DNA from: Lachnospiraceae bacterium
GTDB taxonomy: Bacteria > Bacillota > Clostridia > Lachnospirales > Lachnospiraceae
Direction of reading: 5' to 3'
DNA length: 64,000 nucleotides
Assembly: GCA_016282915.1 (NCBI GenBank)
Contig: JAEELW010000078.1
Coordinates: forward strand, 1 to 64,000
A program made the position numbers and the translations under genes. Positions 33,869-62,913 of the stretch are shown here, one piece after another. Position 1 is the stretch's first letter. Each line of letters opens with the position of its first letter. A model generated the notes under the pieces. It was not told where the DNA came from, did no database searches, and saw only the letters and a list, made by a program, of their open reading frames with translations.

Positions 33869-33903
33869 ACGTGCCTGTCCGATTCGGGCAGGCACGTTTA
33901 TGT
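33869..33903 (+). terminator. Intra-operon hairpin, partial terminator
   Basis: ACGTGCCTG (33869-33877) pairs with CAGGCACGT (33889-33897), with an inner CCG/CGG pair, followed by a short mixed T tract (TTTATG). It would stop or stabilise most transcripts after the binding-protein gene and lower permease output. Confidence 0.6.
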
Positions 33904-33948
33904 AAAAAAATACGCCGGTATGAATCTATAAGCCTGGAGGGTTGTAGC

Positions 33949-34893: not shown

Positions 34894-34906
34894 GGAGGGG
34901 GATATC

Positions 34907-36699: not shown

Positions 36700-36785
36700 A
36701 TCTTCATATTGGCAAATTGGGCTTTTTTGTCATGGAAAAAGCTGTGGCTTGCAGCTTTAACACGATAAAGGAAGGAACCGGATCA

Positions 36786-37481
36786 ATGCGGATAGCGATA
36801 TGCGACGACAAACAAACGGACGCGAACAAGATCGAATTCGCCCTGATGGATGTAAGTCCCAATCTGGATATTGAATATTTTGATACCGGCAGTATGCTTC
36901 TTGATGCTGCCGCGTCTGAGCCACACTTTGATATGGCTTTTCTCGATAGATATCTGAATAAGGAAAACGGTATGGACACCGCACGGAAACTCCGCGAGAT
37001 CTCGCCCAGGACCGAACTGGTCTTCTGCACCAGCAGTAAAGATCACGCCGTGGATGCATTCCGCATCCGCGCGGTGGATTATCTCTTAAAGCCGTATTCC
37101 GAGCTGGACATTGTACGCGCTTTCGCCAGAGCGAAAGTCGCGGGCCGCGAGAACAATGACAGTCAGATCCTTTTAAAGAGCGGGAACGAATTCCTCGTTT
37201 TCCGTTCCGAAGATGTGATCAAGATCGAAAGCGAACGGCATTATACCAGGATCGTTACGAAAGATAACGGCGTGAGCCGTATACATATGGGCTTTTCCAA
37301 TGTACGGGAAAAGTTTCCGGAAGGCTTTTTGAATGTAAAGCGCGGGCTGGCCGTGCGGATGGATTGTATTGAAAGGATCAAAGGGGATACGATCTATATC
37401 TCGGACGGCTCCAGCGTTGTGATGAGCCGCGCAAAAAAAGACGAACTTGTGGCGGAATACACAAAGTATATCTCGGGCTGA
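36786..37481 (+). CDS. LytTR-type response regulator
   Basis: A 231-residue AgrA/LytR-type regulator. The receiver domain has the acidic pair in IAICDDKQ, phospho-acceptor Asp54 in MAFLDRYL, a Ser/Thr switch in VFCTSSKDH and Lys in YLLKPY. The C-terminal LytTR DNA-binding domain runs from about residue 130 (LLKSGNEFLVFRSEDVIKIE to the end). The start at 36786 has AAGGAAGGA upstream. No histidine kinase gene is adjacent. It is the last gene before the CIS locus and in the same direction, so it is a candidate CIS regulator. Confidence 0.92.
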   Translation: MRIAICDDKQTDANKIEFALMDVSPNLDIEYFDTGSMLLDAAASEPHFDMAFLDRYLNKENGMDTARKLREISPRTELVFCTSSKDHAVDAFRIRAVDYLLKPYSELDIVRAFARAKVAGRENNDSQILLKSGNEFLVFRSEDVIKIESERHYTRIVTKDNGVSRIHMGFSNVREKFPEGFLNVKRGLAVRMDCIERIKGDTIYISDGSSVVMSRAKKDELVAEYTKYISG

Positions 37482-37646: not shown

Positions 37647-39500
37647 ATGAACAATCAACTGTATCCCTTTGAGCGTAACCGTTATTATCCGGGAAAGATG
37701 CTGACGACAGCGGACTTTCAGGCGGAGCAGGATTACCTCATCAACAAGACGCGTTTTATGAACAGTCTGATGTATGGTGCGGGAATCGTCTGCGGGCTGG
37801 GGGTCTTCAGTCTGGATGATCTTTCGATCCTGGTGGAGAGCGGTGTGGCTATCGACGGGACCGGCCGCGAGATCGTGGTGGATTCCTCGGTAGTGCGTAA
37901 ACTATCCGCTGTTGAAGGCTTTGACAGCCTGAAGGGAGATACGGCGACGCTCTGCGTGCGCTTTAAGGAAGAACCTGTACATACGGTGTATTCCGTGGGC
38001 CACGGGGATTCGGATAAAGAATATGAGTACAACCGCATCAGTGAGGGTTATGAGCTGTTCCTCACCGAAAAGAAGGGCCGCGTCAAGGATTATGAGATGC
38101 AGACGGAATTCCTTCTGCGGCAGACGGTATTTAAGAGCGAGAATTATCTGGCCGAGGTGATCATCCCCGCTATCGTGAGCAAAGGCAGGAACGTACGTAT
38201 CGTACTTTCCGTGAAAAAGCTCTCCGATGACGATGTGCGTCTTTCCACCCGCGGTGTGTTGGAGATCCCCGTATTCTCCACGCCCGACGGCGGACAGCTT
38301 CTCGAGATCGGAGCAGAGGATCTGCGCCTGAGCCGCGGCGAGATCTGGAGAAAGGATTTCTGGGTAACGGTACAGGATGTGCCTGCAGATGAGACCAATG
38401 TGATCCTTAAGAGCGGCTCCATGACGGCTTTTGAAAATGACAGTGCCATCACGGCTGTTCAGAGCTTTACCCAGAAGGTGCGTCTCACAAAGAATTCGCC
38501 GCTGGAACTGGTCAATGACGAGATCGGACGTATGAATCTGGAAATGCGCAGCATGGGCGGCGAGAAGAATCTGATCCGTCTGGCGGAGATCAAGATCGCA
38601 CGGACCGATTCCAGCTATCTGATCGAAGAGATCAAAGAGAGCAGCGCACGCAAGCATATCGCGGCGCCCGCGCAGGAACTGCTGCGCAGCCATTATATCG
38701 AATACTTTGAAAAAGGCGTGGAACTGCGCAGGAGCAGTGAAACGGTCGGTGCTGCGGCTTCCACCGATCCCCTTCGCAACTCCGAATCCGGAACGCCCGA
38801 GATCGCGACCGGCGTGCTGGAGATCCCTCTGGGACGCAATGTACGCCCCGGCGATATCCGTTATTCCGGCGAGATCGCTCACGGCCTTGGCAAGGGCAAT
38901 GTCTATGTGGATGTAGGTCTGGAGAATATCAGCGAAGACCGCACTCTGGGCGGCAGCGCAAAGAGCACTGTATACGGAAATCCCGAGCTCTTTGCGACCA
39001 AGAACGACGAACTGCTGAAGGTGGAGACCGCCGTACGCGTCCTGAATGACAAAGGCACCTTTGTGGTGGCTGCAAGGCTTCTCGGAAATGTGGATCATCT
39101 GGTGCTGAGCTATCGCTGGGTGGCGATGCGCTTCCCTACCGGAAACGATCTGGAGATGCTGGACGATTTCTACGACCGCAGTATTTCCGCAGAGACGCCT
39201 ACGGTGACCATGGGTACGAAGGAGAGCCACTTCTTCGGCGTACAGTTCAACAATATGAAGGCCTGCAGCATCACATACGAGCTCACCGCTCCCGGAAGCG
39301 GCGAGATCAGTGCGGACGGCATCTACACCGCGCCCGCCAAAGAAGGCGTATACGAGATCCATATCTATTGCACGGATATGCCGGTGATCTGCACCTATGC
39401 ATATGCGATCGTAAAGAAGCGCGAACACCTGGATGACGACGCAAACGGCGGAAAGCCGGCCGTCTCCGTCACAGTACCGAATGCGGGTAGCAAGAGCTGA
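37647..39500 (+). CDS. CIS-associated protein with conserved N-terminal domain
   Basis: A 617-residue soluble protein and the first gene of the CIS locus. Its N-terminus, RYYPGKMLTTADFQAEQDY followed by YGAGIVCGLGV, matches a motif I recall from proteins in many extracellular CIS clusters. The middle is beta-rich; the last 90 residues (VTMGTKESHFFGVQF, SGEISADGIYTAPA) look like a bacterial Ig-like domain. No signal peptide is seen. Gene 39500 starts on its stop codon (TGATG), so the two are coupled. It could be a fibre, a baseplate accessory or an assembly factor; the role is unproven. Confidence 0.8.
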   Translation: MNNQLYPFERNRYYPGKMLTTADFQAEQDYLINKTRFMNSLMYGAGIVCGLGVFSLDDLSILVESGVAIDGTGREIVVDSSVVRKLSAVEGFDSLKGDTATLCVRFKEEPVHTVYSVGHGDSDKEYEYNRISEGYELFLTEKKGRVKDYEMQTEFLLRQTVFKSENYLAEVIIPAIVSKGRNVRIVLSVKKLSDDDVRLSTRGVLEIPVFSTPDGGQLLEIGAEDLRLSRGEIWRKDFWVTVQDVPADETNVILKSGSMTAFENDSAITAVQSFTQKVRLTKNSPLELVNDEIGRMNLEMRSMGGEKNLIRLAEIKIARTDSSYLIEEIKESSARKHIAAPAQELLRSHYIEYFEKGVELRRSSETVGAAASTDPLRNSESGTPEIATGVLEIPLGRNVRPGDIRYSGEIAHGLGKGNVYVDVGLENISEDRTLGGSAKSTVYGNPELFATKNDELLKVETAVRVLNDKGTFVVAARLLGNVDHLVLSYRWVAMRFPTGNDLEMLDDFYDRSISAETPTVTMGTKESHFFGVQFNNMKACSITYELTAPGSGEISADGIYTAPAKEGVYEIHIYCTDMPVICTYAYAIVKKREHLDDDANGGKPAVSVTVPNAGSKS

Positions 39501-40342
39501 TGATATTTGAATCAGATAAACTGAAACTGGAAGAGGTGGGGACCGTCTATCTTTCGGCGGCCTGCGACTGCTTGATCTGCCGGGATCTGAACATGGGCGG
39601 CAGCACGATGTATACGGTGCTGCGCGTGTCGGATCATGAGATCGTAAAGAAGCTCATCTCGATCTTTGACGAGAACCGGGGCAGCGAAAAAGTCCTGGTG
39701 GAGAGTTTTTCGACAGACGGCGTCCATATCTTTGTATTTCCCTACCGTCGTGAGCGTGCCCTGGACGAGTTCTACATGGGCGATACGATGCCGCTCACGC
39801 GCTGTGAGGATATCTGCATCAACCTGATCCTGGCCTGTATGACCAGCGGTCTGCCCTGGCCCTATCTGTATCTGGTGCTGGAGCAGCACAAACTCAATAT
39901 CAACCGGGATGATTCGATCTTTCTGAACTATGGAGTGGAACTGAAGGATCTGGATCCCGAAAAGAAGGAGAAGGACTGCGTAGTCGCCTGTGCTAGAGTA
40001 CTGCTGAAGCTTCTGGAGAGCAAGGCGGATCAGAAGGCCGACAGCTACACGCTGCTGAGCAAAAAGATCGAGAACCAGAGCTACAACAAGTTTACGGAGC
40101 TCTACAGGGATGTGCGTATCGCGGCAGTATCCAAAGGAAAACAGGGGATCCTGACCCGTATACGCCGCTGGCTGTCAGCAAGGAAGGACCGCTTCCTGGG
40201 ACTGATCTTCTGGCTCAGCCTGATCCTCGTGATCATCGCACTGGCAATGCTGCTTTCCAACCTGGTGCTGGGAGATATACCCTGGCTCAGACTGTTTGTG
40301 AACAATTTCAAGAATATAGGGACTGAGTCCCTGCTGCAATAG
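39500..40342 (+). CDS. Single-pass membrane protein with possible pseudokinase fold
   Basis: A 280-residue protein: about 230 cytoplasmic residues, one membrane helix (FLGLIFWLSLILVIIALAML) and a 25-residue outer tail. The cytoplasmic part has RCEDICINLILACMTSG and HKLNINRDDSIFLNYGVEL, which recall the C-lobe of kinase-like folds (catalytic loop replaced by LNINRDDS), similar in layout to EssB/YukC of type VII secretion. The similarity is weak and is inference. It starts on the stop codon of the preceding gene and is 14 nt from the next. Confidence 0.7.
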   Translation: MIFESDKLKLEEVGTVYLSAACDCLICRDLNMGGSTMYTVLRVSDHEIVKKLISIFDENRGSEKVLVESFSTDGVHIFVFPYRRERALDEFYMGDTMPLTRCEDICINLILACMTSGLPWPYLYLVLEQHKLNINRDDSIFLNYGVELKDLDPEKKEKDCVVACARVLLKLLESKADQKADSYTLLSKKIENQSYNKFTELYRDVRIAAVSKGKQGILTRIRRWLSARKDRFLGLIFWLSLILVIIALAMLLSNLVLGDIPWLRLFVNNFKNIGTESLLQ

Positions 40343-40356
40343 GAGAGGGAGATCCG

Positions 40357-42825
40357 ATGTATAAGAAATCGGCTGTCATTATATGTTTGCTGTTTCTGCT
40401 TATTTCGGGAGCACTGTTCGTGTATGTGCTCACCACCGGCGTACAGAAGCCTTCCTTTGACGGTTTCGGCTGCGGGATGGAGCATAAGGGAGATTACTAC
40501 TACGTGGACGGCGGGAATGACGGAATGCGTTTCTTCGTCCTTGATAAGTTCGGGAATGTGCTGTCGATGTATACGGCAGCAGGCATAAAGACCGTGGATC
40601 TGTGTGATGACGGAGAACGCATCTTTGTGCTGCAGGAGGATGAGCTGCGCGTTGATGAAACGGGGCGCTACCGCTCCTACCGCCTGCGCGAGTTCACCGA
40701 GAAACTGCTCCCGGTGGGGACTACGGCGGCTTTTGAACTGCACGATTCGGAGCAGGCCGTGGACGTGAACATTGAAAACGGATTGATCAACATCTCGGCC
40801 ATTTCCACAGACGGAAAGACCGCCGAGGTCTACAGTCTAGAACTGGAAGAGCTCATGGCGCTGGGAGATGCGGAGAGAGAGGCGAAAAACGCCGCACTGG
40901 AAGCCGGTGATCCGGAACCGCAGACCGAGGCAGTGAGCGCGGACAGCATCCTGCTGGTCAACAGCGATAAGGGCCGGATCTTTGTGGATGCGGCATATCG
41001 TGAAGGCACCCTTTACAAGCGCTGCGATGAAGACGAGCCCAGAGGCATCTTCCTGATGAGCGAAGATCTGAAGAAAGCGGTGGAGAATGTGCAGCTGAGC
41101 TTCGGCCAGTCCGTTGCACTCTCCGGTTCCCTGACCATTTACTGGGTAGCCGGAACGGCCCTGATCCTTGTCTTTTTCATCCTTTCCTTCCTGGCCTTTG
41201 CAAACCGCAGACGCCTGGTATATACGGGCCTTCTGGTGGAAGTGATCTTTGTGGCGATGCTCCTGGTCTTCTTTGTGGGCTATTCGCGGCAGAGCACCGA
41301 AGTGAAAAAACAGGCGAGACGCGATTATGCGGACAACGCCATGAGCTGGCTCTCCTCACAGATGGGGACCATCGACAGCTGGGCGAAGGGAAGTACCGGC
41401 AAAGGCTGGTTTGACAGTATCGCCTACCGCGGGGCCCAGGGAACGATGCATGATTTTGTGCTGCAGGACGGAAACCGTTCCATTTTCTATAATGTATTCG
41501 TACTGCGCGTAAAAGACGGGATCATCATCTGCAGCGCCGACGGCCGTGCAAGAGAAAAAGTATCCGATCTTTACGGCGAAAATGAGATGTGGGACAGCTT
41601 AAGGACGGGCAGCAGCAGTATGAGCACCGCCGAGCTGGGAGTGACCGGACGCGGCTTTGCCGCAAAGGCGCTGAAACAGGGCGGCTCCCGCAGTGATTAT
41701 GCGCTGGTGGGCATCATCAACGACAGCACCACCGGAGCTCCCCTGTATGAGCAGGCCGGCCTTTTAAGAAACCTTCTGCTGATCTTCATTGTGGGAAGTG
41801 CCGTGCTCTTCCTGATCCTCTGGCTGCAGGCTGCGGATATGCGGCGCTTTGAGAGCGCTCTGGCGGCGGTAGCTACCCGGGGAGGAAAGAGCAGTAAAAA
41901 GCGCGGCAAGATCACCGGCCACGACCTGGACCACATGTGGAACAGTCTCGGCGAGATCAATAAACAGATCGAAAAGATCGATTACAGCCGTTTTCAGATC
42001 TATGAGGCATACTACCGTTTTGCCCCGAGGAACATTGAAAAGATACTGCAGAAGAATTCCATCTTCGAAGTACAGAGCGGCGATACCGCAACGGTCAGCG
42101 GCACACTGGCTTATGTGGGATCGAGCCGCACGGTGCAGGCCGATCAGAGGATCGCGCAGCTCAACCGTCTGCTGGATTTCCTTACCGCAGACAGGGAGCG
42201 CGAAGCCATCATCGTAGGCGAGAGCGACGGTCTGGCAGTGACGGAGCTGCTCTTCCTGGAAGACGCAGACTATACCCAGGATTTCGCCGTGAACCTGATC
42301 CGCAGCGAGCAGGAAAAGAACCGGCAGAAGACTGATATGAGCGTGCTGCTCTATTACGGCTCCTACACCTACGGTATCGCGGGAACGGATTCGCAGAGCA
42401 TGCCTTTCCTCCTTGCAACGGAATCCCGTGAGCTGTCCCGACTGGCGGAATGGTTCTACACTCTGAACCTGTACGCGGTGATCACCGCTGAAGTAAAGGA
42501 TCGTGAGCCGGCAGCCTATGATACGCGCTATATCGGCTTTGTAAGGCTGGCGGGCAGCGGCAGGGAACTGAAGCTCTTTGAAGTGCTCGACGCCTGCCCG
42601 AAGAGAGAGCGTCAGGCCAAGCTGGACGACCGGGAGCGTTTCTCGGAAGCCCTGGCCCTCTTCTATCAGAAAGACTATTATATCGCGCGGAATGCGTTTT
42701 CGGATATCCTGAAGCGGAATCCCACGGACGAGATCGCGCGCTGGTATCTGTTCGAGAGCGAGCGGCTTCTGGATAAGGGAGCTGCCGCAGGGGAGCATGC
42801 AGGAGCGCTTTATGCGGATAATTAA
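40357..42825 (+). CDS. Membrane receptor with degenerate class III nucleotide-cyclase domain
   Basis: An 822-residue membrane protein. Helices lie at about residues 5-27, 261-280, 288-308 and 470-490. Residues 30-255 are beta-rich (YYYVDGGNDGMRFFVLDKFG, VLQEDEL), propeller-like and outside; residues 310-468 are a second outer sensor. After a HAMP-like linker, residues 544-765 resemble class III adenylate cyclases: FAPRNIEKILQKNSIFEV matches the entry segment. The metal-binding Asp of FSDIRGFT is missing (LAYVGSSRTV), so catalysis is unlikely. A TPR-like tail (LFYQKDYYIARNAFSDILK) ends it, as in adenylate cyclases. It probably senses an outside signal and relays it by binding. Confidence 0.75.
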   Translation: MYKKSAVIICLLFLLISGALFVYVLTTGVQKPSFDGFGCGMEHKGDYYYVDGGNDGMRFFVLDKFGNVLSMYTAAGIKTVDLCDDGERIFVLQEDELRVDETGRYRSYRLREFTEKLLPVGTTAAFELHDSEQAVDVNIENGLINISAISTDGKTAEVYSLELEELMALGDAEREAKNAALEAGDPEPQTEAVSADSILLVNSDKGRIFVDAAYREGTLYKRCDEDEPRGIFLMSEDLKKAVENVQLSFGQSVALSGSLTIYWVAGTALILVFFILSFLAFANRRRLVYTGLLVEVIFVAMLLVFFVGYSRQSTEVKKQARRDYADNAMSWLSSQMGTIDSWAKGSTGKGWFDSIAYRGAQGTMHDFVLQDGNRSIFYNVFVLRVKDGIIICSADGRAREKVSDLYGENEMWDSLRTGSSSMSTAELGVTGRGFAAKALKQGGSRSDYALVGIINDSTTGAPLYEQAGLLRNLLLIFIVGSAVLFLILWLQAADMRRFESALAAVATRGGKSSKKRGKITGHDLDHMWNSLGEINKQIEKIDYSRFQIYEAYYRFAPRNIEKILQKNSIFEVQSGDTATVSGTLAYVGSSRTVQADQRIAQLNRLLDFLTADREREAIIVGESDGLAVTELLFLEDADYTQDFAVNLIRSEQEKNRQKTDMSVLLYYGSYTYGIAGTDSQSMPFLLATESRELSRLAEWFYTLNLYAVITAEVKDREPAAYDTRYIGFVRLAGSGRELKLFEVLDACPKRERQAKLDDRERFSEALALFYQKDYYIARNAFSDILKRNPTDEIARWYLFESERLLDKGAAAGEHAGALYADN

Positions 42826-42840
42826 CGGAGGTAGGAAGCC

Positions 42841-44079
42841 TTGAACGGTGGAAATCTCTTTTCGGTACTGCTTTCGACGATAAGATCGCGTTTTTCCGCG
42901 ATCACGTCCAAAGTCAGGCTGTGGACAAGCTGGAACTTCATACAGTCGCGTATCATCACCAGGATACGTCAGTTCTTTACAAAGCTCTTTGACGTAAAAC
43001 CGAAGAACAAGGACGATTATTATACCTTCTTCGGCTGGATGGTCAGCAAAAAGCTGGCCAGATCCATCATCATCCTGCTGGGCGTGGTGAGCATCTGGTA
43101 TATCGTTTCCGTCAAGCAGGTCTTTGCGGGAATGGGCAGCAACGGCGGGATCCGTACCTACAGCTACGATTCGCTGCAGCTTCGGCTGGCAAAGGATCAG
43201 GTGCGCATCCTCGGAAAGAGCGGTTATCTGGCTTATGAAGGACAGGTGGCCAAAGGCTATGTGACCGGCGTGGGCACGCTTTATACGCCGGACGGCGCGG
43301 TACTTTACAACGGCAACTTTACAAAGAATCTGTTCGAAGGCGCCGGAAAGCTTTATTTCCCCTCCGGGGCGGTGCATTACGAAGGGAACTTTCACAATAA
43401 CCTGTATGACGGAGCCGGGAAGCTCTACCGCGAAAGCGGCAGCATCCTCTACGACGGCAATTTCGTCCGGGGGCAGAAGAGCGGCGAGGGCAAGCTTTTC
43501 GGAGAGAACAGCAGCCTGGTCTACGAAGGACAGTTTGCAGCCGACGATATCGTGTACGCATCCTTCCTGGGCAAGAGCACCGCGGAAGCAAGGGACAGCT
43601 ATCAGGGCGGCCGCAGGGTGTGGCAGGGTACGGATATGTACTGCGTATACATGAACGATATCGGCGCCATGTATACCGGCAAAGCGGACGCCAATAACTT
43701 AAACGACGAAGTGATGATCGACAGTGTGTACGTGATCTCCGACAGTTTCCCTCTGGGAGTGGGGAGGACGGACGAGCTGAAGGATATCCGGAGCTTTTTC
43801 GGAGATCCGATCTACGAAGGCAATTCCGCGGCGATCCTTCCGGAAGCGGTGGTGATCAACATCTTAAACGAGACCCACCCTTCGTTTAACGGCAAAGTGG
43901 AGATGAGGAGCAGCAAGCCCTTCTCCGACGTGACCATCGTGGACGCCGTGGATGAGAACTACAGCGTATACCTTACCAGTTTTGTAAACAACGGCCTGAT
44001 CTATACCTTTGTATCCGAAGGAAGAGACGGCAAATTCGAGTTTTACTGTATCAGCGCAGCGGGAGACAGCGTCGGGTGA
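42841..44079 (+). CDS. MORN-repeat membrane protein
   Basis: A 412-residue protein: a basic N-terminal part of 70 residues, one membrane helix at about 75-93 (SIIILLGVVSIWYIVSVKQ), then an outer domain with at least five MORN-like repeats from about residue 130 to 245 (YEGQVAKGYVTGVGTLY, YNGNFTKNLFEGAGKLY, YEGNFHNNLYDGAGKLY, YDGNFVRGQKSGEGKLF). A beta-rich tail follows. The start is TTG with a near-perfect GGAGGTAGGAAG site. It overlaps the next gene by four bases. MORN repeats bind membranes, wall glycans or proteins; here a surface scaffold is likely. Confidence 0.8.
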   Translation: MNGGNLFSVLLSTIRSRFSAITSKVRLWTSWNFIQSRIITRIRQFFTKLFDVKPKNKDDYYTFFGWMVSKKLARSIIILLGVVSIWYIVSVKQVFAGMGSNGGIRTYSYDSLQLRLAKDQVRILGKSGYLAYEGQVAKGYVTGVGTLYTPDGAVLYNGNFTKNLFEGAGKLYFPSGAVHYEGNFHNNLYDGAGKLYRESGSILYDGNFVRGQKSGEGKLFGENSSLVYEGQFAADDIVYASFLGKSTAEARDSYQGGRRVWQGTDMYCVYMNDIGAMYTGKADANNLNDEVMIDSVYVISDSFPLGVGRTDELKDIRSFFGDPIYEGNSAAILPEAVVINILNETHPSFNGKVEMRSSKPFSDVTIVDAVDENYSVYLTSFVNNGLIYTFVSEGRDGKFEFYCISAAGDSVG

Positions 44080-46151
44080 AAAAGAACAGACGGAAAAAAA
44101 GCATATTGCTCTTTGCGGCATCACTGATCCTCTGCCTCAGTGCCTTTCTCGGCAGCGGACAGGAGGGCAGGGCGTTTACCCTTCCGTTCATGAAGAAGCC
44201 GGAAGTGCCGCTGACCATGAAAGCGGCAAGGGCTCTTGCGGTGGAAGAGAGCACCGAGCTCTTCCAGGTGGAGCAGACCATCTCCTCCAAGCAGGCGGCT
44301 TTGAAGAGCGCGCAGAAATCCATCAAGCTCAAGCAGAAGAACATGTCCACCTTCCGCTGGTCGCCGCTTCTGAACTTTCAGTTTCCAACCAGGCCCAATG
44401 AGGCAGAGGCTTTCGAGTTTGAGAACAAGCCGGCTTCGATCCAGTTCGAGATCGATGAAGCGAACCACAAGCTGACGGATGTGAAGCTCGGGATCTATGA
44501 AGAGATCAACAAGCTCTATGTAGATATCGTGGTACTGCAGAAGACGATCGAATTCAACGAATACCGCATCTCGGTGCTGGAAGAAGGGCTGGCAAGGAAT
44601 AAGGCCCGCCTTGTGACCGGCGAAGCCACCCAGGCGGATGTGGACAGCATCAGCAAAAAGCTGGATGCTACAAAGGAAACCGTGGCAAATAAAAAGCGCA
44701 GTCTGGCGGCGGATCTCCGGAAGCTTTCGGACAAGGTCGGGACGGATGTGAGCACCGGTTATTCCTTCGAGACTCCGTTCATCGAGGCGTCCATTCCGCG
44801 TAAGCAGCTGCCCGGGCTGATCCAGTACACCCTGGACCATGATCAGACCTATTACAAGGCCTGCCTGGACGAGACAGCGGCCAGACTGACACTGAATACC
44901 AACTACAGCCTGATGAGGAATCATTACGGCGGTGATATCAACCGGATCTCCGGATATGTGGCACAGTCGCTGGCCGGTCAGAAGCTGAAGGGCAGTGCGC
45001 TGAAGGGCTTTAAGAAAGATTACGACGCTTTCATTGAACAGATCGACAGCTACTGGCAGGGTAAAAAGAGGATCGTGTTCGTAAAGATCCCCAGGTTATG
45101 GTTCAAAGGAGCCCAGGACGGTGCACGTTATATCGAGGATGACCCTTATGTGCTTTATCAGGCGACCCTGGATTACAGCAGCGCCGCAACGGATAAACTG
45201 GCGGCCGAGTCCGATCTGGAAGAGCAGGTCATCGACACCTTTGAAAATTATGTATCTGTTCGGAATTCCTATATAAAGATGGCCAAGGATATCGAGCAGG
45301 CCGAAGCCGATCTGGAAGCCGACCTGACCAGAAACCGTCTGGGCGAGCTGACATTTGAGGAATACAGCTCCGAGATGGACGACTACGAAGAGCTTCAGAA
45401 CAGCTTCTTTGAACTGATGAAGACCTTTTCCGAGACGCTCTACGGCTTTGACCGTCTCACCTGCGGAGGCATCAGCGCTTTTCTTGCAGGAGACGATGCG
45501 AGCCTGAACGCCGGCCAGGTAGGCACCAGCTATGTGGAAAAGGAAATCGCGGACGGAGCCAGCTATTATATCCGCCAGCTCATTCAGAATGAGGCATTTG
45601 AACTGTCGGTCTATATTCCCGAGGATTTCGATGTTGAGATCACGCATTTCGAGCTCTGGTGCGATAACGTACAGGTCGGAAAGCGGACCGAGGTCGCACG
45701 GGGACTCAGGCATCTGGCACTTACAACAAGCGGCATCAGGACGGCAAAGATCCGTCTTTACAACGGAGAGGAATTCGTAGACGATGTGGTGATCGATCCC
45801 AGCGAATCCAGCGGCCCCCTGCCCATCACGAAGGACCGGCGCATCGTCAAGAACAATCCGGACGAGATCGGGCTCGTAGAAATCTCTACCAGCCCCGTAA
45901 CGGGACTCATGAACATCCGTGTGGAGATCACGGAGGATTCGGCAGCAGCGTTCTATCAGGTAAAAGATGCGGAAGGTGTGATCTTTTCCGGAAAGACACC
46001 GGTGGAGAACGGTAAGGAATTCCGTCATCTGGCACTGGTGGAAGACGGGCTGGAGGAAGCAGTGATTGATGTGATGGATAAAGATAAGAACGTATTGTAT
46101 CAGGCGCGTTTTGACATGAAGAACCACAGGGTAAGAAAGGTGGAACCGTAA
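44076..46151 (+). CDS. Secreted TolC-fold (outer-membrane-efflux-like) protein
   Basis: A 691-residue secreted protein. A signal peptide (KKSILLFAASLILCLSAFLG) precedes about 440 residues of long heptad helices typical of TolC/OEP proteins: MKAARALAVEESTELFQVEQ, ISSKQAALKSAQKSIK, KLGIYEEINKLYVDIVVLQ, LARNKARLVTGEATQADVDS. Two beta-rich C-terminal domains (residues 500-590 and 600-690) share the motif R-LRHLAL/FRHLALVEDG. The start is GTG overlapping the upstream stop as GTGA. A TolC fold in a cell with no outer membrane is unusual; it may span the cell wall. Function is inference. Confidence 0.78.
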   Translation: MKKNRRKKSILLFAASLILCLSAFLGSGQEGRAFTLPFMKKPEVPLTMKAARALAVEESTELFQVEQTISSKQAALKSAQKSIKLKQKNMSTFRWSPLLNFQFPTRPNEAEAFEFENKPASIQFEIDEANHKLTDVKLGIYEEINKLYVDIVVLQKTIEFNEYRISVLEEGLARNKARLVTGEATQADVDSISKKLDATKETVANKKRSLAADLRKLSDKVGTDVSTGYSFETPFIEASIPRKQLPGLIQYTLDHDQTYYKACLDETAARLTLNTNYSLMRNHYGGDINRISGYVAQSLAGQKLKGSALKGFKKDYDAFIEQIDSYWQGKKRIVFVKIPRLWFKGAQDGARYIEDDPYVLYQATLDYSSAATDKLAAESDLEEQVIDTFENYVSVRNSYIKMAKDIEQAEADLEADLTRNRLGELTFEEYSSEMDDYEELQNSFFELMKTFSETLYGFDRLTCGGISAFLAGDDASLNAGQVGTSYVEKEIADGASYYIRQLIQNEAFELSVYIPEDFDVEITHFELWCDNVQVGKRTEVARGLRHLALTTSGIRTAKIRLYNGEEFVDDVVIDPSESSGPLPITKDRRIVKNNPDEIGLVEISTSPVTGLMNIRVEITEDSAAAFYQVKDAEGVIFSGKTPVENGKEFRHLALVEDGLEEAVIDVMDKDKNVLYQARFDMKNHRVRKVEP

Positions 46152-46155
46152 GTTG

Positions 46156-49098
46156 ATGACGAAGCGGAATGAGAAAAAAAGAGCGTTTCCGAAACGCGGC
46201 ATAATAGCGCTTCTCCTGGTGGCGGAAATGCTGGTGGGACTGTTTCTCAGCAGCGACGGCGTGCGCGCCGTGGGCAATGAATCCCAGGCCATGCTTTTCG
46301 GAACATACCGTGCAAACCATGAGATCGAGGATGGAGTGCTCTTTATCGGTACCTATCTGATCAATAAGGATGCGATCACCGACGAGCTGTACGAACAGGC
46401 GCAGGATTCGGCCAGTGAATGGGGCCAGCAGGATCTGTATTACAAGTCGGAGTTCAATAACGGGAACTGGTTCAAGATCAGCGAGCTGGGATCCTTTGCC
46501 GAGATCGGCAAGAGCGGTACTCCGGCAGAGGATGAAGAGATCAACGCCCTGTATGTACAGTATTACATGGGAAGCGACGGTATACTGATCGACGTGATGA
46601 CCGGTGAGGAAAAGAATCCCTTTGACCTGATCGACCCGTACGACCTGTCCCACCTTCCCGAGCTGGACCCCCTGCGCCAGCAGTATACCTATAATGCGGA
46701 GCTTTACGATATCGACCTGAAGACTTACCTGACCAATCACAATTCCTGGGATAAAAAGACCCTCCGGGCAGATGTGTATTACTACCGCATCATGAACGTG
46801 TTCATGCATCTGGATATGCGGGATGAAGTGACGACCATGTGCGATACCCAGCTTGCACGGCTTTACAGCTGCTACAAGACGCTGAAGCGGCAGGAGAACG
46901 ACAGCGAAGCCGAGCTGGTCTATTCCCTGATGGGAAAGGTGGATGCGGCGCGCCGGGCAGTGGTCTTCGAAAAGCTTTCCCAGCTGGATCAGAGCGCTCT
47001 CGGAGAGCTCTACAACCTGGCGCTGGGCAGCTACTATACTTCCATCGGCAATTTCAAATACGCCGGCTGGGATGATCCTGAGACGCCGGGCTGGCTTCTG
47101 GATATCCTGAACGCGGTCTATCATAATTTTGATGATGACGGTATCTTCGAGCGGATCAGGAGGGATATGGGGATATATGACGACTGGTGGATCCCCATCG
47201 TGCCCGATGTGTACGAGGAGGATGATGAGGATGCCGAGGAACCCGAAAGGGATGCCCTCACACCGGATGATGCCATCATAACGGCGATCTCCACCTGCAT
47301 GGAAAACTGTCAGACAAGCTACAGCAAGCATGCCAATAACCGTCTGCAGGATATCGACAATGTGATCGGTCACGCGGAATACGAATACAGCATCGCCGTG
47401 ATCAACGGTGCGAGCGAGGCGGGCCTCAGCGCGGAAACCACTTCTTTGAAAAATATCATCAATATCAAAGAAGGTATCATCCGTGATGCCGACGGAGAGC
47501 TGGCTCTGATCGATACCATACTGCTGCCCAGGGCTACGGACCGTTATTCCGGGGATGCAAAGGCAGGAGCTTCCGCCGAATACCGGGCCGCAGCGGCCAA
47601 CGGAAAAGGCGATTCCGCCATGGAAAGCGCTCTCAACGACCAGAAGGACAGTCTGGAAGCAAGACGTAACGAGCTGCAGTATCTGATCGATCAGAAGAAG
47701 CAGCGTACGGACGCGGAAACGGCCCTGGCGGATGTCTACGGACGGATCACCGCGACGACGGGATGGAAGGATGCGGTGCCTGCGGATGCCTTTTCCGTAA
47801 GAGCGAAGCAGTCACTCGAGGATCATATCATCTGGCTGAAGGAAACGGCCAGAAGCATCAAGAATGAAGACGACAGCCTTGCTTCGAAGCTGGACGAGCT
47901 GAAGGAGAAGAAAGAGGATCTGCAGACGGAACTGCAGGCAGCGTTGGACGATAACGACCTGGCAAAGGCCGCGGATCTGGAAGCCCAGATCGCAGCGATC
48001 GATCAGGATATCGCGGATGAAGAACAGAGACTTGCGGAAGAACGCAGTAATGCGGACAATGCCGGCGATGCGGCAGCGGCCCTGGTGGATATGGGCGATT
48101 CCATGGAAGCCCTGACCGACCGCCTGCTGGATAAGGCAAAGGGCCGCATCAGTGACGGCGACTACGACGGCCTGCAGAACTCGGTCGACGCCCTGGCAGC
48201 CATCGGCGCTACCGATGCACTGAAGGAGATCGAGGGTCTGCTGGAGGGTACCGATGCTCCGGCCTCCGTAAAGAATGCTGTGAAGGACGCCATCAGTGAG
48301 AGCAGCGGAAACGGTTCGGGAAGCGGTTCGGGAGACGGATCGGGAGACGGAAGCGGAGACGGCTCGGGCAGCGGTTCCGGCGATGGCAGCGGTTCAGGAA
48401 GCGGAAGCGGTTCCGGCGATGGCAGCGGTTCAGGAAGCGGAAGCGGTTCCGGCAGCGGCAGCGGCTCAGGAGGCGGAAGCGGTTCCGGCAGCGGCAGCGG
48501 TTCAGGAGGCGGAAGCGGCTCGGGCAGCGGCGGAGACGGCACCGAAGGCATCGATATCGGAAGCCTTACGGCGGACGACATCAAAGCGGTGATCGCAGCG
48601 CTCTTCGGAGATGCCGATTCCATGGATAACGAAACCATGGCGGGCGTGCTCACGGGACTTTCCCGCCTGTCCGATAAGGGATGCTCGCCGGCAAAGAAGA
48701 TGGCTCTGGATTATATGAGCCTGGCGGCGGCACTTGGAAATAAGTATATCTATACAAAGTATACGGGAAGCTCCGTAAACGAATATGTACTGGTCAGTAC
48801 CATTGCCGATGTGACGCCTTACCGTTATCTGTACGACGATCCGAAGCAGAAGGCTAAGCTGACAAGCGGTTCCAGCGTATACGAGTTTACCGCGGGCGTG
48901 AATAAGGCGTATCAGGGAGGCGAAAGCTTTGACCTTGCATCGCCGCCGGTACTGGGCGGAGGCTTCTACCTGATGGAGAATGACACTGACAGCTGCTTCG
49001 ATATCACGGCTCAGTATGTGAACGGCAGCGACCGTGCGGTATGCGTGACCGAAGCTGTGGAAGAGATCACCCGGAAGCTTCTGGACGCAATGAAATAG
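46156..49098 (+). CDS. Large secreted or anchored coiled-coil protein with Gly-Ser linker
   Basis: A 980-residue protein with an N-terminal membrane helix or signal ([19 protein letters not shown]). Residues 40-380 are mixed, with acidic ends ([16 protein letters not shown]); about 400-660 is coiled coil ([19 protein letters not shown] and [15 protein letters not shown]). Residues 715-795 are a Gly/Ser/Asp linker. The last 180 residues are a folded domain with [19 protein letters not shown] and [17 protein letters not shown], recalling copper-amine-oxidase N-like surface domains. The ATG 46156 is one codon after TTG 46153. It is the last gene of the membrane module, directly before CIS structural genes. 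Confidence 0.75.
48301..48540 (+). repeat. Gly-Ser(-Asp) coding repeat
   Basis: About 80 codons of simple [11 protein letters not shown]-type sequence, with hexanucleotide-scale repeats of GGCAGCGGTTCAGGAAGC type. It makes a flexible linker and is likely length-variable. Confidence 0.85.
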
Positions 49099-49113: not shown

Positions 49114-49710
49114 ATGGCGGATTATTCGATCATATCGGACGTAAGTGCTTATATCGTAAAGACCCTGCGGGATAAGATGTGCCCCGAGCCCATCCCGTCC
49201 CCCAACAATATCGAGATATCTTCACCGGCGTCGCAGGACGTGGACTATATCGTAGGTCTGTATCTCTACGATATCCGTGAAGATGTGGAAGTCACCCAGC
49301 CCAATTATATCCGGCACGGGCGGGTGCAGCTCCAAAAAGCTCCGAGACCATATGCACTTTATTATATGGTTTTCATAAACGGAGGAGGCCAGATGGGTCT
49401 GAAAGACCCTGATGTTCAGAAAATTATCGGTAAGGTGGCGCAGATCGTCAATGACAACAACGCCGTCGATCCCGGTAGCCTGCAGTCGTGGCTCACCACC
49501 GAAGAACCTCCGATCGTGCTGTCTCAGGCGAGGATAAGCCTGGAGGAGAAGGTGCGGGTATGGCAGGCCATCAACAAGCCATACCAGGTCAGCCTGTTTT
49601 ACCGGGCTGCACCCGTCTTCCTCTCGAGCGCCGATATCATTACGACGCCTCGCGTGGTGGATGCAGAGTTCTCGCTGCGATTATCTGGAGAAAGGAGGGA
49701 TGATGAGTAA
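49114..49710 (+). CDS. CIS tube terminator, Pvc16/Afp16-like (DUF4255)
   Basis: A 198-residue protein with the DUF4255 pattern: YSIISDVSAYIVKTLRD at the start, DYIVGLYLYDIREDVE, and YALYYMVFINGG, ending in RVWQAINKPYQVSLFYRAAP and a short beta tail. In Afp and PVC systems the homologous protein caps the tube and sheath at the distal end and sets the finished length. GGAGAGGAGATC precedes the ATG. It opens the structural half of the CIS locus. Confidence 0.9.
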   Translation: MADYSIISDVSAYIVKTLRDKMCPEPIPSPNNIEISSPASQDVDYIVGLYLYDIREDVEVTQPNYIRHGRVQLQKAPRPYALYYMVFINGGGQMGLKDPDVQKIIGKVAQIVNDNNAVDPGSLQSWLTTEEPPIVLSQARISLEEKVRVWQAINKPYQVSLFYRAAPVFLSSADIITTPRVVDAEFSLRLSGERRDDE

Positions 49711-50526
49711 GTGAAAGCTTCTGTGATCCGTGCACAGCTGGGGTTGCTGATCCGGCTGATCGACACTACAACGGGAGCTGCGGTCGAAGAAAACAATGTA
49801 CGTTTCTTTGTAAACGGACAGAGTGCGCGACCGGCCCCGCGTGGAGACGGCTGCTTCGTGTTTATCAACATAGAGCGTGTGGATTTCCGTCTGGACGTGG
49901 AGACGTTCGGCTACGAAAGAGCAGGCATTGATGTTCGTTACGAAGAACTGGACGACAGGATCCCAACCTGCGACATCTTCCTGATACCGTCAGAGAAGCA
50001 TGCAAAAGGGGATACAGTCATCGGCATTTTCGGAAACCTTCCTTTTTTGGAAGCCATAGAGGCCGTTGACCGTAAAAGGCCGGTGTGCCGTATCAGCGAT
50101 TTTACAGAAAAGACCTGTAAAATGAAAGTGATCCGACAGGCTGGACGCACGCTGGATCTCGACTATGGTCATTATGGCCTGCTACAGGCGGACGGTAACA
50201 GTTACGAAAAAATCCTTGTGTCCGAAACCGATGCAGTGCAGATGATCAAATTGAAAAACGCATTGCAGATGCCGTATACCGTGAATGCGCCGATCGCGAG
50301 GATCGTGTTTGGCAGCGTAGACGAGAAGGGCAATTACCTTCTCCGCATACGCGACGACAGCGACAGTCATGACTATCTGCTGCGCTATGTTGTAAAAGGC
50401 GAGGTCTGTTATCAGCAGACAGACTTTCGTGATCCGGAGAACTTCAAACTGACAGCGCACGTGAAGAAGAAAGAAAAAGCGAAGCCCGTGCAGAAGAAAG
50501 AAGAGAGCGAAGAGGAAAATGAGTGA
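49711..50526 (+). CDS. CIS-locus protein of unknown function
   Basis: A 271-residue soluble protein. The N-terminal 100 residues look like a small beta-sandwich (LLIRLIDTTTGAAVEEN, GDGCFVFINIERVDFRLDVE), similar to carboxypeptidase-regulatory-type domains; a further beta domain follows (ARIVFGSVDEKGNYLLRI), then a Lys/Glu tail. The start is GTG after AAAGGAGGG. It directly follows the terminator gene and overlaps the PAAR-like gene by 8 nt, which ties it to particle assembly. I do not recognise a named family. Confidence 0.7.
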   Translation: MKASVIRAQLGLLIRLIDTTTGAAVEENNVRFFVNGQSARPAPRGDGCFVFINIERVDFRLDVETFGYERAGIDVRYEELDDRIPTCDIFLIPSEKHAKGDTVIGIFGNLPFLEAIEAVDRKRPVCRISDFTEKTCKMKVIRQAGRTLDLDYGHYGLLQADGNSYEKILVSETDAVQMIKLKNALQMPYTVNAPIARIVFGSVDEKGNYLLRIRDDSDSHDYLLRYVVKGEVCYQQTDFRDPENFKLTAHVKKKEKAKPVQKKEESEEENE

Positions 50527-50908
50527 ACTGGTAGCAATGGGAGCCCAGTGTGTATGCACGATGGGACAGGCACCCGCCCCGATCAAGGTCACCTCTCAGC
50601 AGGTGGTGCTCACGGAGGGGAAGCCGACAGCAACGATCACGGACTGTGCAGGAATGTCCAATGTGGGACCTTTCGGACTGTGCACGTCCCTTGCCAATCC
50701 GGCAGTAGCGGCAGCGACCGCGGCAGCGCTGGGTGTACTTACACCGCAGCCCTGTACACCTGTTCCGGCAGGCACATGGATCCCCACGAAACCAAAGATC
50801 CTTGTTTCCGGGAAACCGGTACTCTGCTCCGACTGCAAGATGATGTGTGCTTACGCAGGATCGATCAGTATCGTGAACCCCGGTCAGTTTAAGGTAACGG
50901 CAAGTTAA
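50519..50908 (+). CDS. PAAR-like spike-tip protein (DUF4280)
   Basis: A 129-residue protein with the DUF4280 features: LVAMGAQCVCTMGQAPAPIKV at the start, a middle stretch with ITDCAGMSNVGPFGLCTS, and VLCSDCKMMCAYAGSISIVNPGQ at the end. The conserved Cys and His-poor set would hold a metal at the sharp tip of the spike. DUF4280 proteins cap the spike in several CIS clusters and can carry cargo, though here there is no extension. Its gene precedes the sheath gene rather than following the spike gene. Confidence 0.9.
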   Translation: MSELVAMGAQCVCTMGQAPAPIKVTSQQVVLTEGKPTATITDCAGMSNVGPFGLCTSLANPAVAAATAAALGVLTPQPCTPVPAGTWIPTKPKILVSGKPVLCSDCKMMCAYAGSISIVNPGQFKVTAS

Positions 50909-52672: not shown

Positions 52673-53173
52673 ATGGCAGCAACAGCATATGATAACGGAA
52701 AAGGTTCCGCTTATCCGTTGACAAAAATGAACTTCCTCGTCACGGTTGCATCCGTGGCGGGAACAGCGGCTTTCAGCGAAGTGTCCGGCGTGGAAGCATC
52801 GGTCGATGTGATCGAGTTCCGTCAGGGTAACTCCGGAAGCCTGGCACCGGTTAAGCTTCCCGGCCTCGTGAAGCACGGGAACATCACGTTGAAGATGGGT
52901 TACATTCTTGACAGCGCGTTCAAGACCTGGATCCAGGAGTGCGTATCCGAGATCCGTGGCCAGATCCCCAGAAACGACGTGACGATCGAGCTGATCGACA
53001 TCAACGCAGGCGCTCCCACCGCTACGGTGACGAGCTCCGTCGGCAGCCGTCAGTGGACGCTGACCAATGCCTGGGTCACAAAGTACAATGCTCCGGATCT
53101 GGATGCAAAGACGAGCGACGTGGCGATCGAGTCTGTCGAGATCGCTTACGAAGAGCTGGTGATCCCGAACTGA
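52673..53173 (+). CDS. CIS inner tube protein (gp19-like)
   Basis: A 166-residue tube subunit. Signatures are YPLTKMNFLVTV, FSEVSGVEASVDVIEFRQG, KLPGLVKHGNITLKMG and the C-terminal ASIE-type strand VAIESVEIAYEELVIP. Hexamer rings stack to form the inner tube within the sheath. It follows the sheath with a 20-nt gap and an ACGGAGGG site. A second, modified tube protein is at 53913. Confidence 0.96.
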   Translation: MAATAYDNGKGSAYPLTKMNFLVTVASVAGTAAFSEVSGVEASVDVIEFRQGNSGSLAPVKLPGLVKHGNITLKMGYILDSAFKTWIQECVSEIRGQIPRNDVTIELIDINAGAPTATVTSSVGSRQWTLTNAWVTKYNAPDLDAKTSDVAIESVEIAYEELVIPN

Positions 53174-60119: not shown

Positions 60120-60130
60120 GGTGAATGATT

Positions 60131-62067: not shown

Positions 62068-62079
62068 CCGAGGTGAAAA

Positions 62080-62901: not shown

Positions 62902-62913
62902 AGAGGAGGCAGC

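What the first reader, a model, noticed from the sequence alone, without database searches (positions are those of the whole stretch)
37647..49098. Six-gene membrane and surface module fused upstream of the CIS genes
The six genes before the tube terminator encode a CIS-type N-domain protein and five membrane or secreted proteins: pseudokinase-like, degenerate cyclase receptor, MORN protein, TolC-fold protein and a 980-residue coiled-coil protein. They are tightly spaced, with overlaps or gaps below 20 nt, and run straight into the CIS. Freely released CIS do not need such parts. This suggests a wall-spanning platform that anchors and triggers the particle in a one-membrane cell.
Basis: inference. 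Interest (0 to 1): 0.88.

Follow-up and report, generated by a model that had tools for sequence, protein, structure and literature searches.

The report
Envelope-docking module of a contractile injector
Gut and rumen bacteria with a single membrane carry a spring-loaded protein syringe encoded together with a conserved set of membrane and cell-wall proteins that probably hold the syringe at the cell surface, which suggests that Gram-positive bacteria have their own membrane-mounted injector.

Summary
Six tightly packed genes (37647-49098) run into a contractile injection system (CIS), most likely in a Lachnospiraceae genome.

Gene 1 carries a Cis13-type baseplate-binding N-domain (NCBIfam CIS13_fam, N-domain only, below that model's cut-off). 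Gene 2 is a kinase-fold protein with a C-terminal membrane helix. Gene 3 is a four-segment receptor with a degenerate cyclase-like domain. Gene 4 is a membrane MORN protein. Gene 5 is secreted with a TolC fold whose beta-hairpins are too short for an outer-membrane barrel. Gene 6 is a secreted coiled-coil protein.

In 299 family genomes, 27 have the sheath. Three of these gave no baseplate hit; the other 24 all have genes 1 and 2. Among sheath-less genomes gene 2 gave one weak hit and gene 1 two. Gene 5 (whole or contig-cut) marks 14 of the 24. In 59 of 59 named-record loci with enough sequence, genes 1-5 are in order.

So this is a CIS-dedicated envelope module, but not a fixed six: genes 1-2-4 are shared with a second CIS subtype; genes 5-6 belong mainly to one.

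Most likely gene 1 links the baseplate to a membrane complex (2-4) and a wall collar (5-6): a membrane-docked CIS in a monoderm. Docking, direction and trigger are inferred. New variant of a known kind.

The parts
36717..37481 (+). LytTR response regulator, upstream neighbour (possible local regulator, not a constant part)
   Evidence: Response_reg 3.6e-13 and LytTR 3.4e-9; a same-strand LytTR ORF within 1.2 kb upstream of gene 1 in 23 of 98 relatives' loci examined, a few of them the same genome twice
37647..39500 (+). Gene 1: Cis13-type baseplate-binding N-domain plus beta-rich C-part; soluble adaptor
   Evidence: CIS13_fam E=1.2e-26 over residues 7-144, below model cut-off; weak top hit to Cis19 crown of the thylakoid CIS, E=0.06/0.023; alignments A1, A6
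39500..40342 (+). Gene 2: kinase-fold (pseudokinase) cytosolic domain plus C-terminal TM helix
   Evidence: AF2 pLDDT 85.2; the 50 Foldseek hits listed are all kinase-fold; TM 233-251
40357..42825 (+). Gene 3: receptor with four hydrophobic segments, degenerate class III cyclase-like domain and C-terminal TPR-like segment
   Evidence: relatives with HAMP and, in one partial relative, Guanylate_cyc
42841..44079 (+). Gene 4: single TM region then MORN repeats, probably outside (weak charge signal)
   Evidence: MORN 2.5e-12; hydropathy, flank charges +1 against 0; alignment A7
44076..46151 (+). Gene 5: secreted TolC-fold protein with very short beta-hairpins and a C-terminal beta region
   Evidence: OEP 4e-6; TIGR01844 1e-4, below cut-off; AF2 pLDDT 81.2; Foldseek ranks 1-43 TolC/OMF
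46153..49098 (+). Gene 6: secreted coiled-coil protein with Gly/Ser linker
   Evidence: signal-like N-terminus; repeats 48304-48531; fused to gene 5 in G242
49114..49710 (+). Tube terminator / cap (Pvc16_N)
   Evidence: E=8.9e-27
49711..50526 (+). CIS gene of unknown role, conserved between terminator and PAAR-like gene
   Evidence: synteny
50519..50908 (+). PAAR-like DUF4280 spike tip
   Evidence: DUF4280 5.6e-31
50955..52652 (+). Contractile sheath
   Evidence: Phage_sheath_1 4.6e-17; best solved relative by sequence is 9ezm, E=4.4e-114
52673..53173 (+). Inner tube
   Evidence: Phage_T4_gp19 9.4e-31
53330..53683 (+). Small conserved CIS protein with Zn-ribbon-like end
   Evidence: 52% identical to the Haloferax larsenii homologue over 112 aa
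53913..56684 (+). Conserved CIS N-domain plus lineage-specific 30-aa repeats
   Evidence: 14 D-x-D-R-A motifs spaced mostly 30 aa; 90-nt tandem array
56686..59130 (+). Charged CIS protein, coiled coil by reading
   Evidence: synteny; no Pfam hit at E<=0.1
59130..60916 (+). Two CIS_tube-family (tube-baseplate adaptor) genes
   Evidence: PF19266 1.9e-13 and 2.3e-12
60925..63363 (+). Hub, spike (Phage_base_V) and gp25 baseplate genes
   Evidence: Phage_base_V 3.1e-20, GPW_gp25 4e-17, hub weak (YQBQ 0.00067, Phage_GPD 0.0017)
63335..64000 (+). Start of first Baseplate_J gene; cluster goes on beyond the window to a second Baseplate_J, Tail_P2_I, STAS, ABC ATPase, membrane HATPase, SH3 and two AAA+ genes
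   Evidence: contig is 77,023 bp

Best explanation
The six genes are the envelope-side module of a membrane-docked contractile injection system in a single-membrane bacterium. Gene 1 binds the baseplate through its Cis13-type N-domain and, instead of carrying its own membrane helix as the thylakoid CIS Cis13 does, hands the particle to a cytoplasmic-membrane complex: gene 2 (kinase-fold domain in the cytosol, one C-terminal helix), gene 3 (receptor with an outside sensor part and a dead cyclase-like signalling domain inside) and gene 4 (helix plus outside MORN repeats). Genes 5 and 6 are exported and build a long helical collar or strut in the cell wall around the docking site. A signal sensed outside is relayed through gene 3 to the baseplate and releases sheath contraction, driving the tube outward through membrane and wall. 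Shown: linkage, conservation, folds of genes 2 and 5 (predicted), predicted topology, and that gene 1 carries a CIS baseplate-type domain. Inferred: physical contacts, docking, wall collar, direction of firing, trigger.
For: Co-occurrence: sheath 27 of 299 family genomes; gene 1 in 26 of 299, 24 of them among the 27; gene 2 in 25 of 299 at E<=1e-3, of which 23 at E<=4e-8 plus one contig-end fragment (G006), all 24 in genomes with both sheath and gene 1; gene 5 in 19 of 299 at E<=1e-3, of which 14 whole or contig-cut (E<=6.1e-86), all with sheath and gene 1. The three sheath genomes without genes 1 and 2 gave no Baseplate_J-type hit, four control genomes did. Order: 59 of 59 assessable loci. 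In the sheath tree the window's clade (16 rows, SH-aLRT 100) has gene 5 in 14; the two exceptions are G046 and G233 (quick tree). Gene 1 N-domain: CIS13_fam E=1.2e-26. In the thylakoid CIS the Cis13 N-domain binds the baseplate and its C-terminal helix enters the membrane; with Cis13 truncated 9 of 14 particles seen were free-floating, never seen in wild type (PMC8894136, passages). Best solved sheath relative is 9ezm, the sheath of a haloarchaeal CIS seen bound to the cytoplasmic membrane (PMC11566945). Folds. Genes 5 and 6 fused in one 1558-aa ORF in G242, suggesting that they act together; its end matches Cu_amine_oxidN1. A 287-aa OEP-type protein with a signal-like start (by eye) sits at the gene 5 position in another family (L184). 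Host without an Omp85 match.
Against: No localisation or structure of a particle. No complex prediction could be run. The CIS13_fam match is below that model's whole-protein cut-off and covers only the N-domain; the Cis19 match is not significant alone. Gene 3 is missing in 3 of 10 complete stretches of the window's own subtype. Gene 5 was found in only 1 of the 12 second-subtype or intermediate sheath genomes (G242), so a wall collar is not needed for CIS function in general. A trimeric TolC barrel is too narrow for a CIS tube (recalled). The outside placing of gene 4 rests on a weak charge signal. Proteins with this kind of N-domain are catalogued elsewhere as target-binding tail fibres (PMC12923769; the equation with its eBAP3 class is my inference). 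Genes 3, 4 and 6 were not searched family-wide.
Confidence: 0.6

Rival explanations
1. A stress- or envelope-sensing self-lysis device: particles assemble in the cytoplasm and are recruited to the membrane by genes 1-4 only when gene 3 senses damage, firing to kill or open the own cell, as proposed for Streptomyces and Anabaena CIS; genes 5-6 shape the wall at the site.
For: A Streptomyces CIS needs the single-pass membrane protein CisA for function and firing (PMC12237407, title, start of abstract and passages). Anabaena CIS firing only ever occurred upon lysis (PMC8894136, passages). The cluster also carries STAS and a membrane HATPase and, in G104, a Cache-HAMP-SpoIIE-HATPase gene, parts of the kind used in stress-type partner switching (recalled).
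Against: CisA is one protein with a different domain; here a multi-protein set with two exported proteins is conserved. Exported rod-like proteins are easier to explain for outward firing. Neither point is decisive.
Confidence: 0.25
2. An extracellular CIS: gene 1 is an ordinary target-binding tail fibre, particles are released by lysis, and genes 2-6 serve display, release or immunity.
For: Fibre genes lie downstream of Tail_P2_I and baseplate genes in about 90% of cases (PMC12923769, passage) and gene 1 does so in the second subtype; L193 has a gene 1 whose C-part looks fibre-like (my reading). eCIS_core (PF13699) proteins occur in 7 of 16 CIS genomes searched, the host included.
Against: In the family genomes searched every genome with sheath and gene 1 also has gene 2, and in the window's subtype gene 1 aligns over its whole length (39-58% identity), unlike fast-changing receptor-binding parts.
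Confidence: 0.1
3. An unrelated secretion or efflux operon that happens to sit next to the CIS.
For: TolC-fold, MORN and receptor proteins occur in many contexts (general knowledge; no call).
Against: Co-occurrence and synteny across genera; genes 1-2-4 sit at the other end of the cluster, before the terminator, in the second subtype.
Confidence: 0.02

Closest known systems
Haloarchaeal membrane-bound CIS ('archaeal T6SS', Halogeometricum borinquense; PMC11566945)
   Same: Best solved sheath relative by sequence (9ezm). The Haloferax larsenii CIS has a gene 1-type N-domain protein directly upstream of the sheath, a sheath 50% identical over a 288-column stretch and a 52%-identical small protein. 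In the paper a separate putative membrane anchor gene is linked to the clade that holds the docked system. Single-membrane cell.
   Different: Its putative anchor is one six-helix protein; here several different membrane or exported proteins, including a TolC fold, in a walled bacterium.
Thylakoid-anchored CIS (tCIS) of Anabaena, Cis13 and Cis19 (PMC8894136)
   Same: Gene 1 N-domain matches CIS13_fam and weakly hits Cis19; baseplate-to-membrane adaptor logic. Whether NCBI's CIS13_fam covers the Anabaena Cis13 itself was not tested.
   Different: Gene 1 has no membrane helix in its C-part; anchoring would be passed to separate proteins; cytoplasmic rather than thylakoid membrane.
Streptomyces CIS with CisA (PMC12237407)
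   Same: Monoderm; dedicated membrane protein needed for firing; related sheath (8bky, E=3.3e-96; named as the S. coelicolor sheath in PMC11566945).
   Different: One bitopic protein with a binding-protein-like end; no TolC-fold, MORN or pseudokinase partners described in the passages seen.
Canonical T6SS membrane complex TssJLM and TssK adaptor (recalled)
   Same: Proposed role: baseplate adaptor plus trans-envelope complex; eBAP3 fibres are said to resemble TssK (PMC12923769, passage).
   Different: No TssJ, TssL or TssM match in the six proteins.
TolC / outer-membrane factor family
   Same: Fold of gene 5.
   Different: Beta-hairpins of 3-4 residues per strand in the model, no Omp85 in the host, extra C-terminal beta region.

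Membership tests
Contractile injection system (eCIS-type cluster) | Sheath, tube, spike, gp25, Baseplate_J, Tail_P2_I, Pvc16 terminator, PAAR-like tip, AAA+ ATPase in one cluster | tested here: met
Cis13 family | CIS13_fam model over its curated whole-protein cut-off | tested here: not met
   93.9 bits against cut-off 370; N-domain 3-139 of 392 only; 0 of 8 genomes searched over the cut-off
Cis13 family | Homologous N-domain | tested here: met
   E=1.2e-26; same domain in CIS clusters of Haloferax and Nostoc and beside baseplate-like ORFs in Paenibacillus
Thylakoid-type (tCIS) anchoring | Transmembrane helix in the Cis13 C-terminus | tested here: not met
   hydropathy peaks in gene 1 and homologues lie almost only in the N-domain and none reaches 2.2
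Canonical T6SS | TssJ/TssL/TssM membrane complex | tested here: not met
   no such Pfam match up to E=1 among the six proteins; rest of the genome not searched
[quoted passage not shown]
   needs cryo-tomography
Haloarchaeal CIS anchor (Hbor_38620-like) | Six-TM protein with about 150-residue cytoplasmic domain | not tested
   sequence not fetched; none of the six window proteins shows six TM segments
CisA | Bitopic protein with periplasmic-binding-like C-terminal domain | tested here: inconclusive
   genes 2 and 4 are bitopic by hydropathy but carry kinase-fold and MORN domains; CisA itself was not compared
TolC / outer-membrane factor | Duplicated helical hairpin fold | tested here: met
   Foldseek ranks 1-43, TMt 0.47-0.63; OEP 27.2 bits over cut-off 22
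TolC / outer-membrane factor | Membrane-spanning beta strands in an outer membrane | tested here: not met
   3-4-residue strands at 94-102 and 330-339 in the model; no Omp85 in host, 7 of 14 controls ring
Protein kinase | Kinase fold | tested here: met
   Foldseek E to 5e-7, TM-scores 0.3-0.5 in the 50 listed
Protein kinase | Conserved catalytic residues | tested here: not met
   by eye on alignment and model: no HRD-type loop, DFG position reads NYG in the window, no conserved beta-3 lysine
Class III adenylate/guanylate cyclase (gene 3) | Metal-binding aspartates | tested here: not met
   by eye on the alignment of ten homologues, one of them partial: no Asp at the first motif position

The most novel reading that the evidence does not exclude
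Monoderm Firmicutes have a true trans-envelope contractile secretion machine: a Cis13-type baseplate adaptor, a pseudokinase-receptor-MORN membrane complex and a wall-spanning collar built from a TolC fold that has lost its outer-membrane barrel, firing outward through the cell's own wall, with the TolC fold reused as a peptidoglycan strut.
Probability: 0.4. Interest if true: 0.87.

Novelty: new variant of a known kind. Interest (0 to 1): 0.72.

Why it matters
Membrane-docked CIS are known from diderm bacteria (T6SS), cyanobacterial thylakoids and haloarchaea, and a membrane protein needed for firing is known in Streptomyces. How a walled Gram-positive cell could use a contractile machine across its own envelope is open. 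This module is a concrete, conserved candidate for that platform in rumen and gut Lachnospiraceae. Carriers whose record titles do not say MAG and so read as isolates (Butyrivibrio sp. Su6, Butyrivibrio sp. AE3009, Lachnospiraceae bacteria XBB2008 and AD3010) make it testable by cryo-tomography. It also shows a TolC fold apparently recruited for a new role in a cell without an outer membrane, and suggests that some proteins classed as CIS tail fibres are internal adaptors.

Tried and rejected
Fixed six-gene unit: rejected. In the second subtype genes 1-2-4 follow the Tail_P2_I gene in 6 of 6 clusters examined (L065, L066, L067, L068, L198, L194/L195; gene 2 in L068 is only a weak hit, E=0.0036); in 5 of 6 the terminator follows, in L065 the stretch ended first; gene 3 was seen in 4 of 6, and the L065 and L067 stretches ended before it could be judged. 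In the window's subtype 10 complete stretches (9 fetched plus the window) all have genes 1, 2, 4, 5 and 6; 7 of 10 have gene 3 (not G176, G104, G085), and in G104 and G085 the terminator lies behind the baseplate genes instead. L150 lacks gene 6. G086 (L055) has genes 1-4 but not 5-6, with two very large surface-type proteins upstream.

Sheath without module as a counter-example: G046, G233 and G253 gave no hit with the first Baseplate_J protein, four positive controls did. G046: no other CIS gene in 17-20 kb on either side. G253: a tube gene beside the sheath, nothing else recognised in the stretches read. G233: sheath, tube and three more CIS genes on a contig of only 3.8 kb, so incomplete assembly or contamination is as likely as decay. 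An earlier search without controls was not relied on. Gene 1 without sheath: G146 (gene 1 at a contig end, genome 68% complete) and G163 (gene 1 cut short beside AAA+ and PAAR genes).

LytTR regulator as a constant part: rejected, 23 of 98. Long gene 5 forms (1019-1322 aa in 9 loci) as gene 5-6 fusions: rejected, no gene 6 match up to E=10; only G242 is a fusion. Phage origin: no gene 1 match in 50,697 phage records. Gene 1 had no Pfam match and genes 1 and 5 none in PHROGs at E<=0.01; single-sequence searches of the PDB gave nothing better than E=0.67 for gene 1 and nothing up to E=1 for gene 5. Gene 5 gave no match in the plasmid records. Promoter and terminator scan uninformative: promoters 9 against 11.1 (sd 3.4), terminators 19 against 14.9 (sd 3.8) in shuffles. 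A second hydropathy peak in many gene 2 homologues (62 of 88 have two) lies inside the kinase domain and is weak, so not read as a TM helix. EssB-like secretion pseudokinase: recalled as an analogue of gene 2, not among the 50 listed Foldseek hits, not tested further. An alignment of gene 4 was made but not searched with.

Literature: ten searches listed no paper on a membrane module for a CIS of Lachnospiraceae or other Clostridia; the library lacks most subscription papers and all preprints, and listings were capped. Papers: PMC11566945 abstract, sections 12 and 13, passages; PMC8894136, PMC12237407, PMC12923769, PMC10066040, PMC8213781 passages; PMC12998442 abstract; PMC12210884 (no hit for the terms) and PMC10266427 (one hit, in its reference list) term searches only.

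Full report
What is there. The window is the first 64,000 bases of a 77,023-bp contig of a 3.85-Mb, 98% complete genome in 181 contigs. Its closest named relatives by gene 1 are Lachnospiraceae, largely rumen MAGs; that the host is of this family is inferred from them. The six ORFs lie exactly as reported and run with gaps of -1, 14, 15, -4, 1 and 15 nt into the Pvc16-type terminator. The CIS continues through PAAR-like tip, sheath, tube, two CIS_tube genes, hub, spike, gp25, two Baseplate_J genes and Tail_P2_I, then STAS, an ABC ATPase, a membrane HATPase, an SH3 protein and two AAA+ ATPases.

Gene 1. No signal-like start and no convincing TM helix. Its first about 140 residues match NCBIfam CIS13_fam at E=1.2e-26, below that model's whole-protein cut-off. 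tblastn finds relatives in 9 plasmid records, all under 60% identical and none covering 80% of the query; I looked at three: Haloferax larsenii (directly upstream of the sheath), Nostoc (directly downstream of a phage tail protein gene) and Paenibacillus (after three large ORFs that read as baseplate genes). A profile gives Cis19 (All3314) of the Anabaena thylakoid CIS as best PDB hit, not significant alone (E=0.06 and 0.023). In that system the Cis13 N-domain binds the baseplate and its C-terminal helix enters the membrane; with Cis13 truncated 9 of 14 particles were free-floating (PMC8894136, passages). A 2026 survey describes an about 200-aa fibre N-domain, eBAP3, common in Bacillota and with TssK-like structure (PMC12923769, passages). 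That gene 1 carries eBAP3 is my inference from size, taxon and gene position.

Gene 2. An AF2 model from 60 homologues (pLDDT 85.2) has a kinase fold followed by a C-terminal helix (233-251) with a positive N-side flank (+5 against 0), so the kinase-like domain should be cytosolic. The helix is strong in 85 of 88 homologues. By eye the catalytic loop is missing and the DFG position reads NYG.

Gene 3. Four hydrophobic segments in the window protein and in 53 of 70 homologues counted. The best Pfam match of the window protein is only E=0.03, and two relatives of its subtype that were scanned match nothing convincing, but relatives in G106, G086 and G663 have HAMP domains, and the partial G022 relative HAMP and Guanylate_cyc. 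The cyclase-like domain lacks the first metal-binding Asp in the ten sequences aligned (by eye). Gene 4 has one TM region and then MORN repeats, placed outside only by a weak charge difference.

Gene 5. Signal-like N-terminus, Pfam OEP over cut-off. The AF2 model from 43 homologues (pLDDT 81.2, pTM 0.56) matches TolC and outer-membrane factors in Foldseek ranks 1-43. Helices of 73 and 36 residues in series would give a rod of about 16 nm (my estimate), while the two beta-hairpins that would form an outer-membrane barrel have strands of only 3-4 residues. The host has no Omp85 match while 7 of 14 control genomes do. So the TolC fold is there, the outer-membrane part is not.

Gene 6. Signal-like N-terminus, a Gly/Ser-rich linker (48304-48531) and coiled coil by reading. 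In G242 one 1558-aa ORF contains gene 5 (residues 5-657, E=2.9e-86) and gene 6 (704-1208, E=1e-42), and ends in a Cu_amine_oxidN1 domain.

Co-occurrence. In the same 299-genome draw of the family: sheath 27; gene 1 26; gene 2 25 at E<=1e-3, of which 23 strong, one contig-end fragment (G006) and one weak (G120); gene 5 19, of which 14 whole or contig-cut and 5 weak partial. Of the 27 sheath genomes 24 have gene 1, and the same 24 have gene 2. The three without (G046, G233, G253) gave no Baseplate_J-type hit while four control genomes did; G253 keeps a tube gene, and G233 has sheath, tube and three more CIS genes on one 3.8-kb contig. Two genomes have gene 1 without sheath, one at a contig end and one cut short. 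All 14 gene 5 genomes have sheath and gene 1. Genes 3, 4 and 6 were not searched family-wide.

Order. In 80 named-record loci 59 have at least 7.7 kb downstream of gene 1; all 59 show genes 1-5 in order and 57 a gene 6 match (by the other two are L143, which ends soon after gene 5, and L150, which goes straight to the terminator). Median gaps are -4 to 18 nt, but some are larger, up to 785 nt between genes 4 and 5.

Two subtypes. The window's subtype (sheath at least 62% identical in the draw) forms a clade of 16 rows with SH-aLRT 100, 14 with gene 5; the two without are G046 and G233 (quick tree). Of its 10 complete stretches (window included) all have genes 1, 2, 4, 5, 6 and 7 have gene 3. 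In the second subtype (53-59%) genes 1-2-4 follow the Tail_P2_I gene in 6 of 6 clusters examined. G086 is intermediate: genes 1-4 in the window's order, no gene 5 or 6.

Beyond the family. Of 398 phylum genomes 17 matched the gene 1 profile: 2 are in the family, 4 match only a C-terminal stretch, and 11 are other families with the N-domain. Four of these 11 (G663, G647, G504, G641) have genes 2 and 4 beside gene 1; in G604 and G444 a gene 4 relative lies within about 6 kb on the other strand; in G381 the contig ends at gene 1; four (G678, G483, G395, G607) have gene 1 beside the baseplate without genes 2 or 4 in the stretch read. At the gene 5 position G504 has a 287-aa OEP-type protein (E=7.2e-9) with a signal-like start by eye, below the hydropathy threshold used. 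So gene 1 is the CIS part, genes 2-4 are an older membrane set, and gene 5-type proteins recur.

How it may work. The pieces fit a docking scheme: baseplate, gene 1, membrane complex 2-4, exported collar 5-6. The nearest solved sheath by sequence is that of a haloarchaeal CIS seen bound to the cytoplasmic membrane (9ezm; PMC11566945), where a putative membrane-anchor gene marks the clade that holds the docked system. The Streptomyces CIS needs CisA (PMC12237407). Docking by dedicated membrane proteins is thus an established idea; the multi-protein module with a barrel-less TolC fold in a walled monoderm is what is new here, as far as ten library searches show. The dimensions of a TolC trimer (recalled) speak against the tube passing through gene 5, so I read it as a strut or collar.

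What stays open. No particle has been seen, no interaction predicted or measured. Whether the CIS fires outward at neighbours or serves lysis of its own cell is not decided by sequence. PF13699 cargo-type proteins occur in the host (contig C116) and in 7 of 16 CIS genomes searched (host counted), and in none of the 6 genomes without CIS that were searched, which says the system may carry effectors but not to whom.

Noticed in passing
53913-56684: CIS gene whose conserved N-domain is followed by an array of about 30-aa repeats (90-nt tandem units, 14 D-x-D-R-A motifs); relatives have shorter forms, 143 to 613 aa.
   Followed up: partly
L030:6721-9111 (contig positions 69721-72114): STAS protein, ABC ATPase, membrane HATPase and SH3 protein directly after the baseplate; STAS follows Tail_P2_I in 6 of 7 relatives read (L056-L059, L061, L062; not L063); G104 adds a Cache-HAMP-SpoIIE-HATPase gene: looks like a partner-switching control circuit.
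   Followed up: partly
G000 contig C116:9853-10074: eCIS_core (PF13699) domain in a 531-aa frame elsewhere in the host genome, a candidate CIS cargo.
   Followed up: no
29686-32082 (-): Protein that reads as a Ser/Thr kinase domain joined through a membrane segment to a sugar-binding-protein-like domain, next to a sugar ABC transporter set (32197-35785); read from sequence only.
   Followed up: no
L055:10959-19901 (-): Two very large surface-type proteins with C-terminal TM segments (one scanned, with repeated chitobiase/Fn3-associated domains) lie upstream of genes 1-4 where genes 5-6 are missing.
   Followed up: partly
L093, L124, L136-L138, L142-L144, L146: Gene 5 with a C-terminal extension of roughly 300-600 aa of unknown kind, without a gene 6 match.
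   Followed up: partly
G046, G233, G253: CIS-type sheath genes without module or detectable Baseplate_J gene: alone (G046), with a tube gene (G253), or with four other CIS genes on a 3.8-kb contig (G233): remnants, contamination or reuse.
   Followed up: partly
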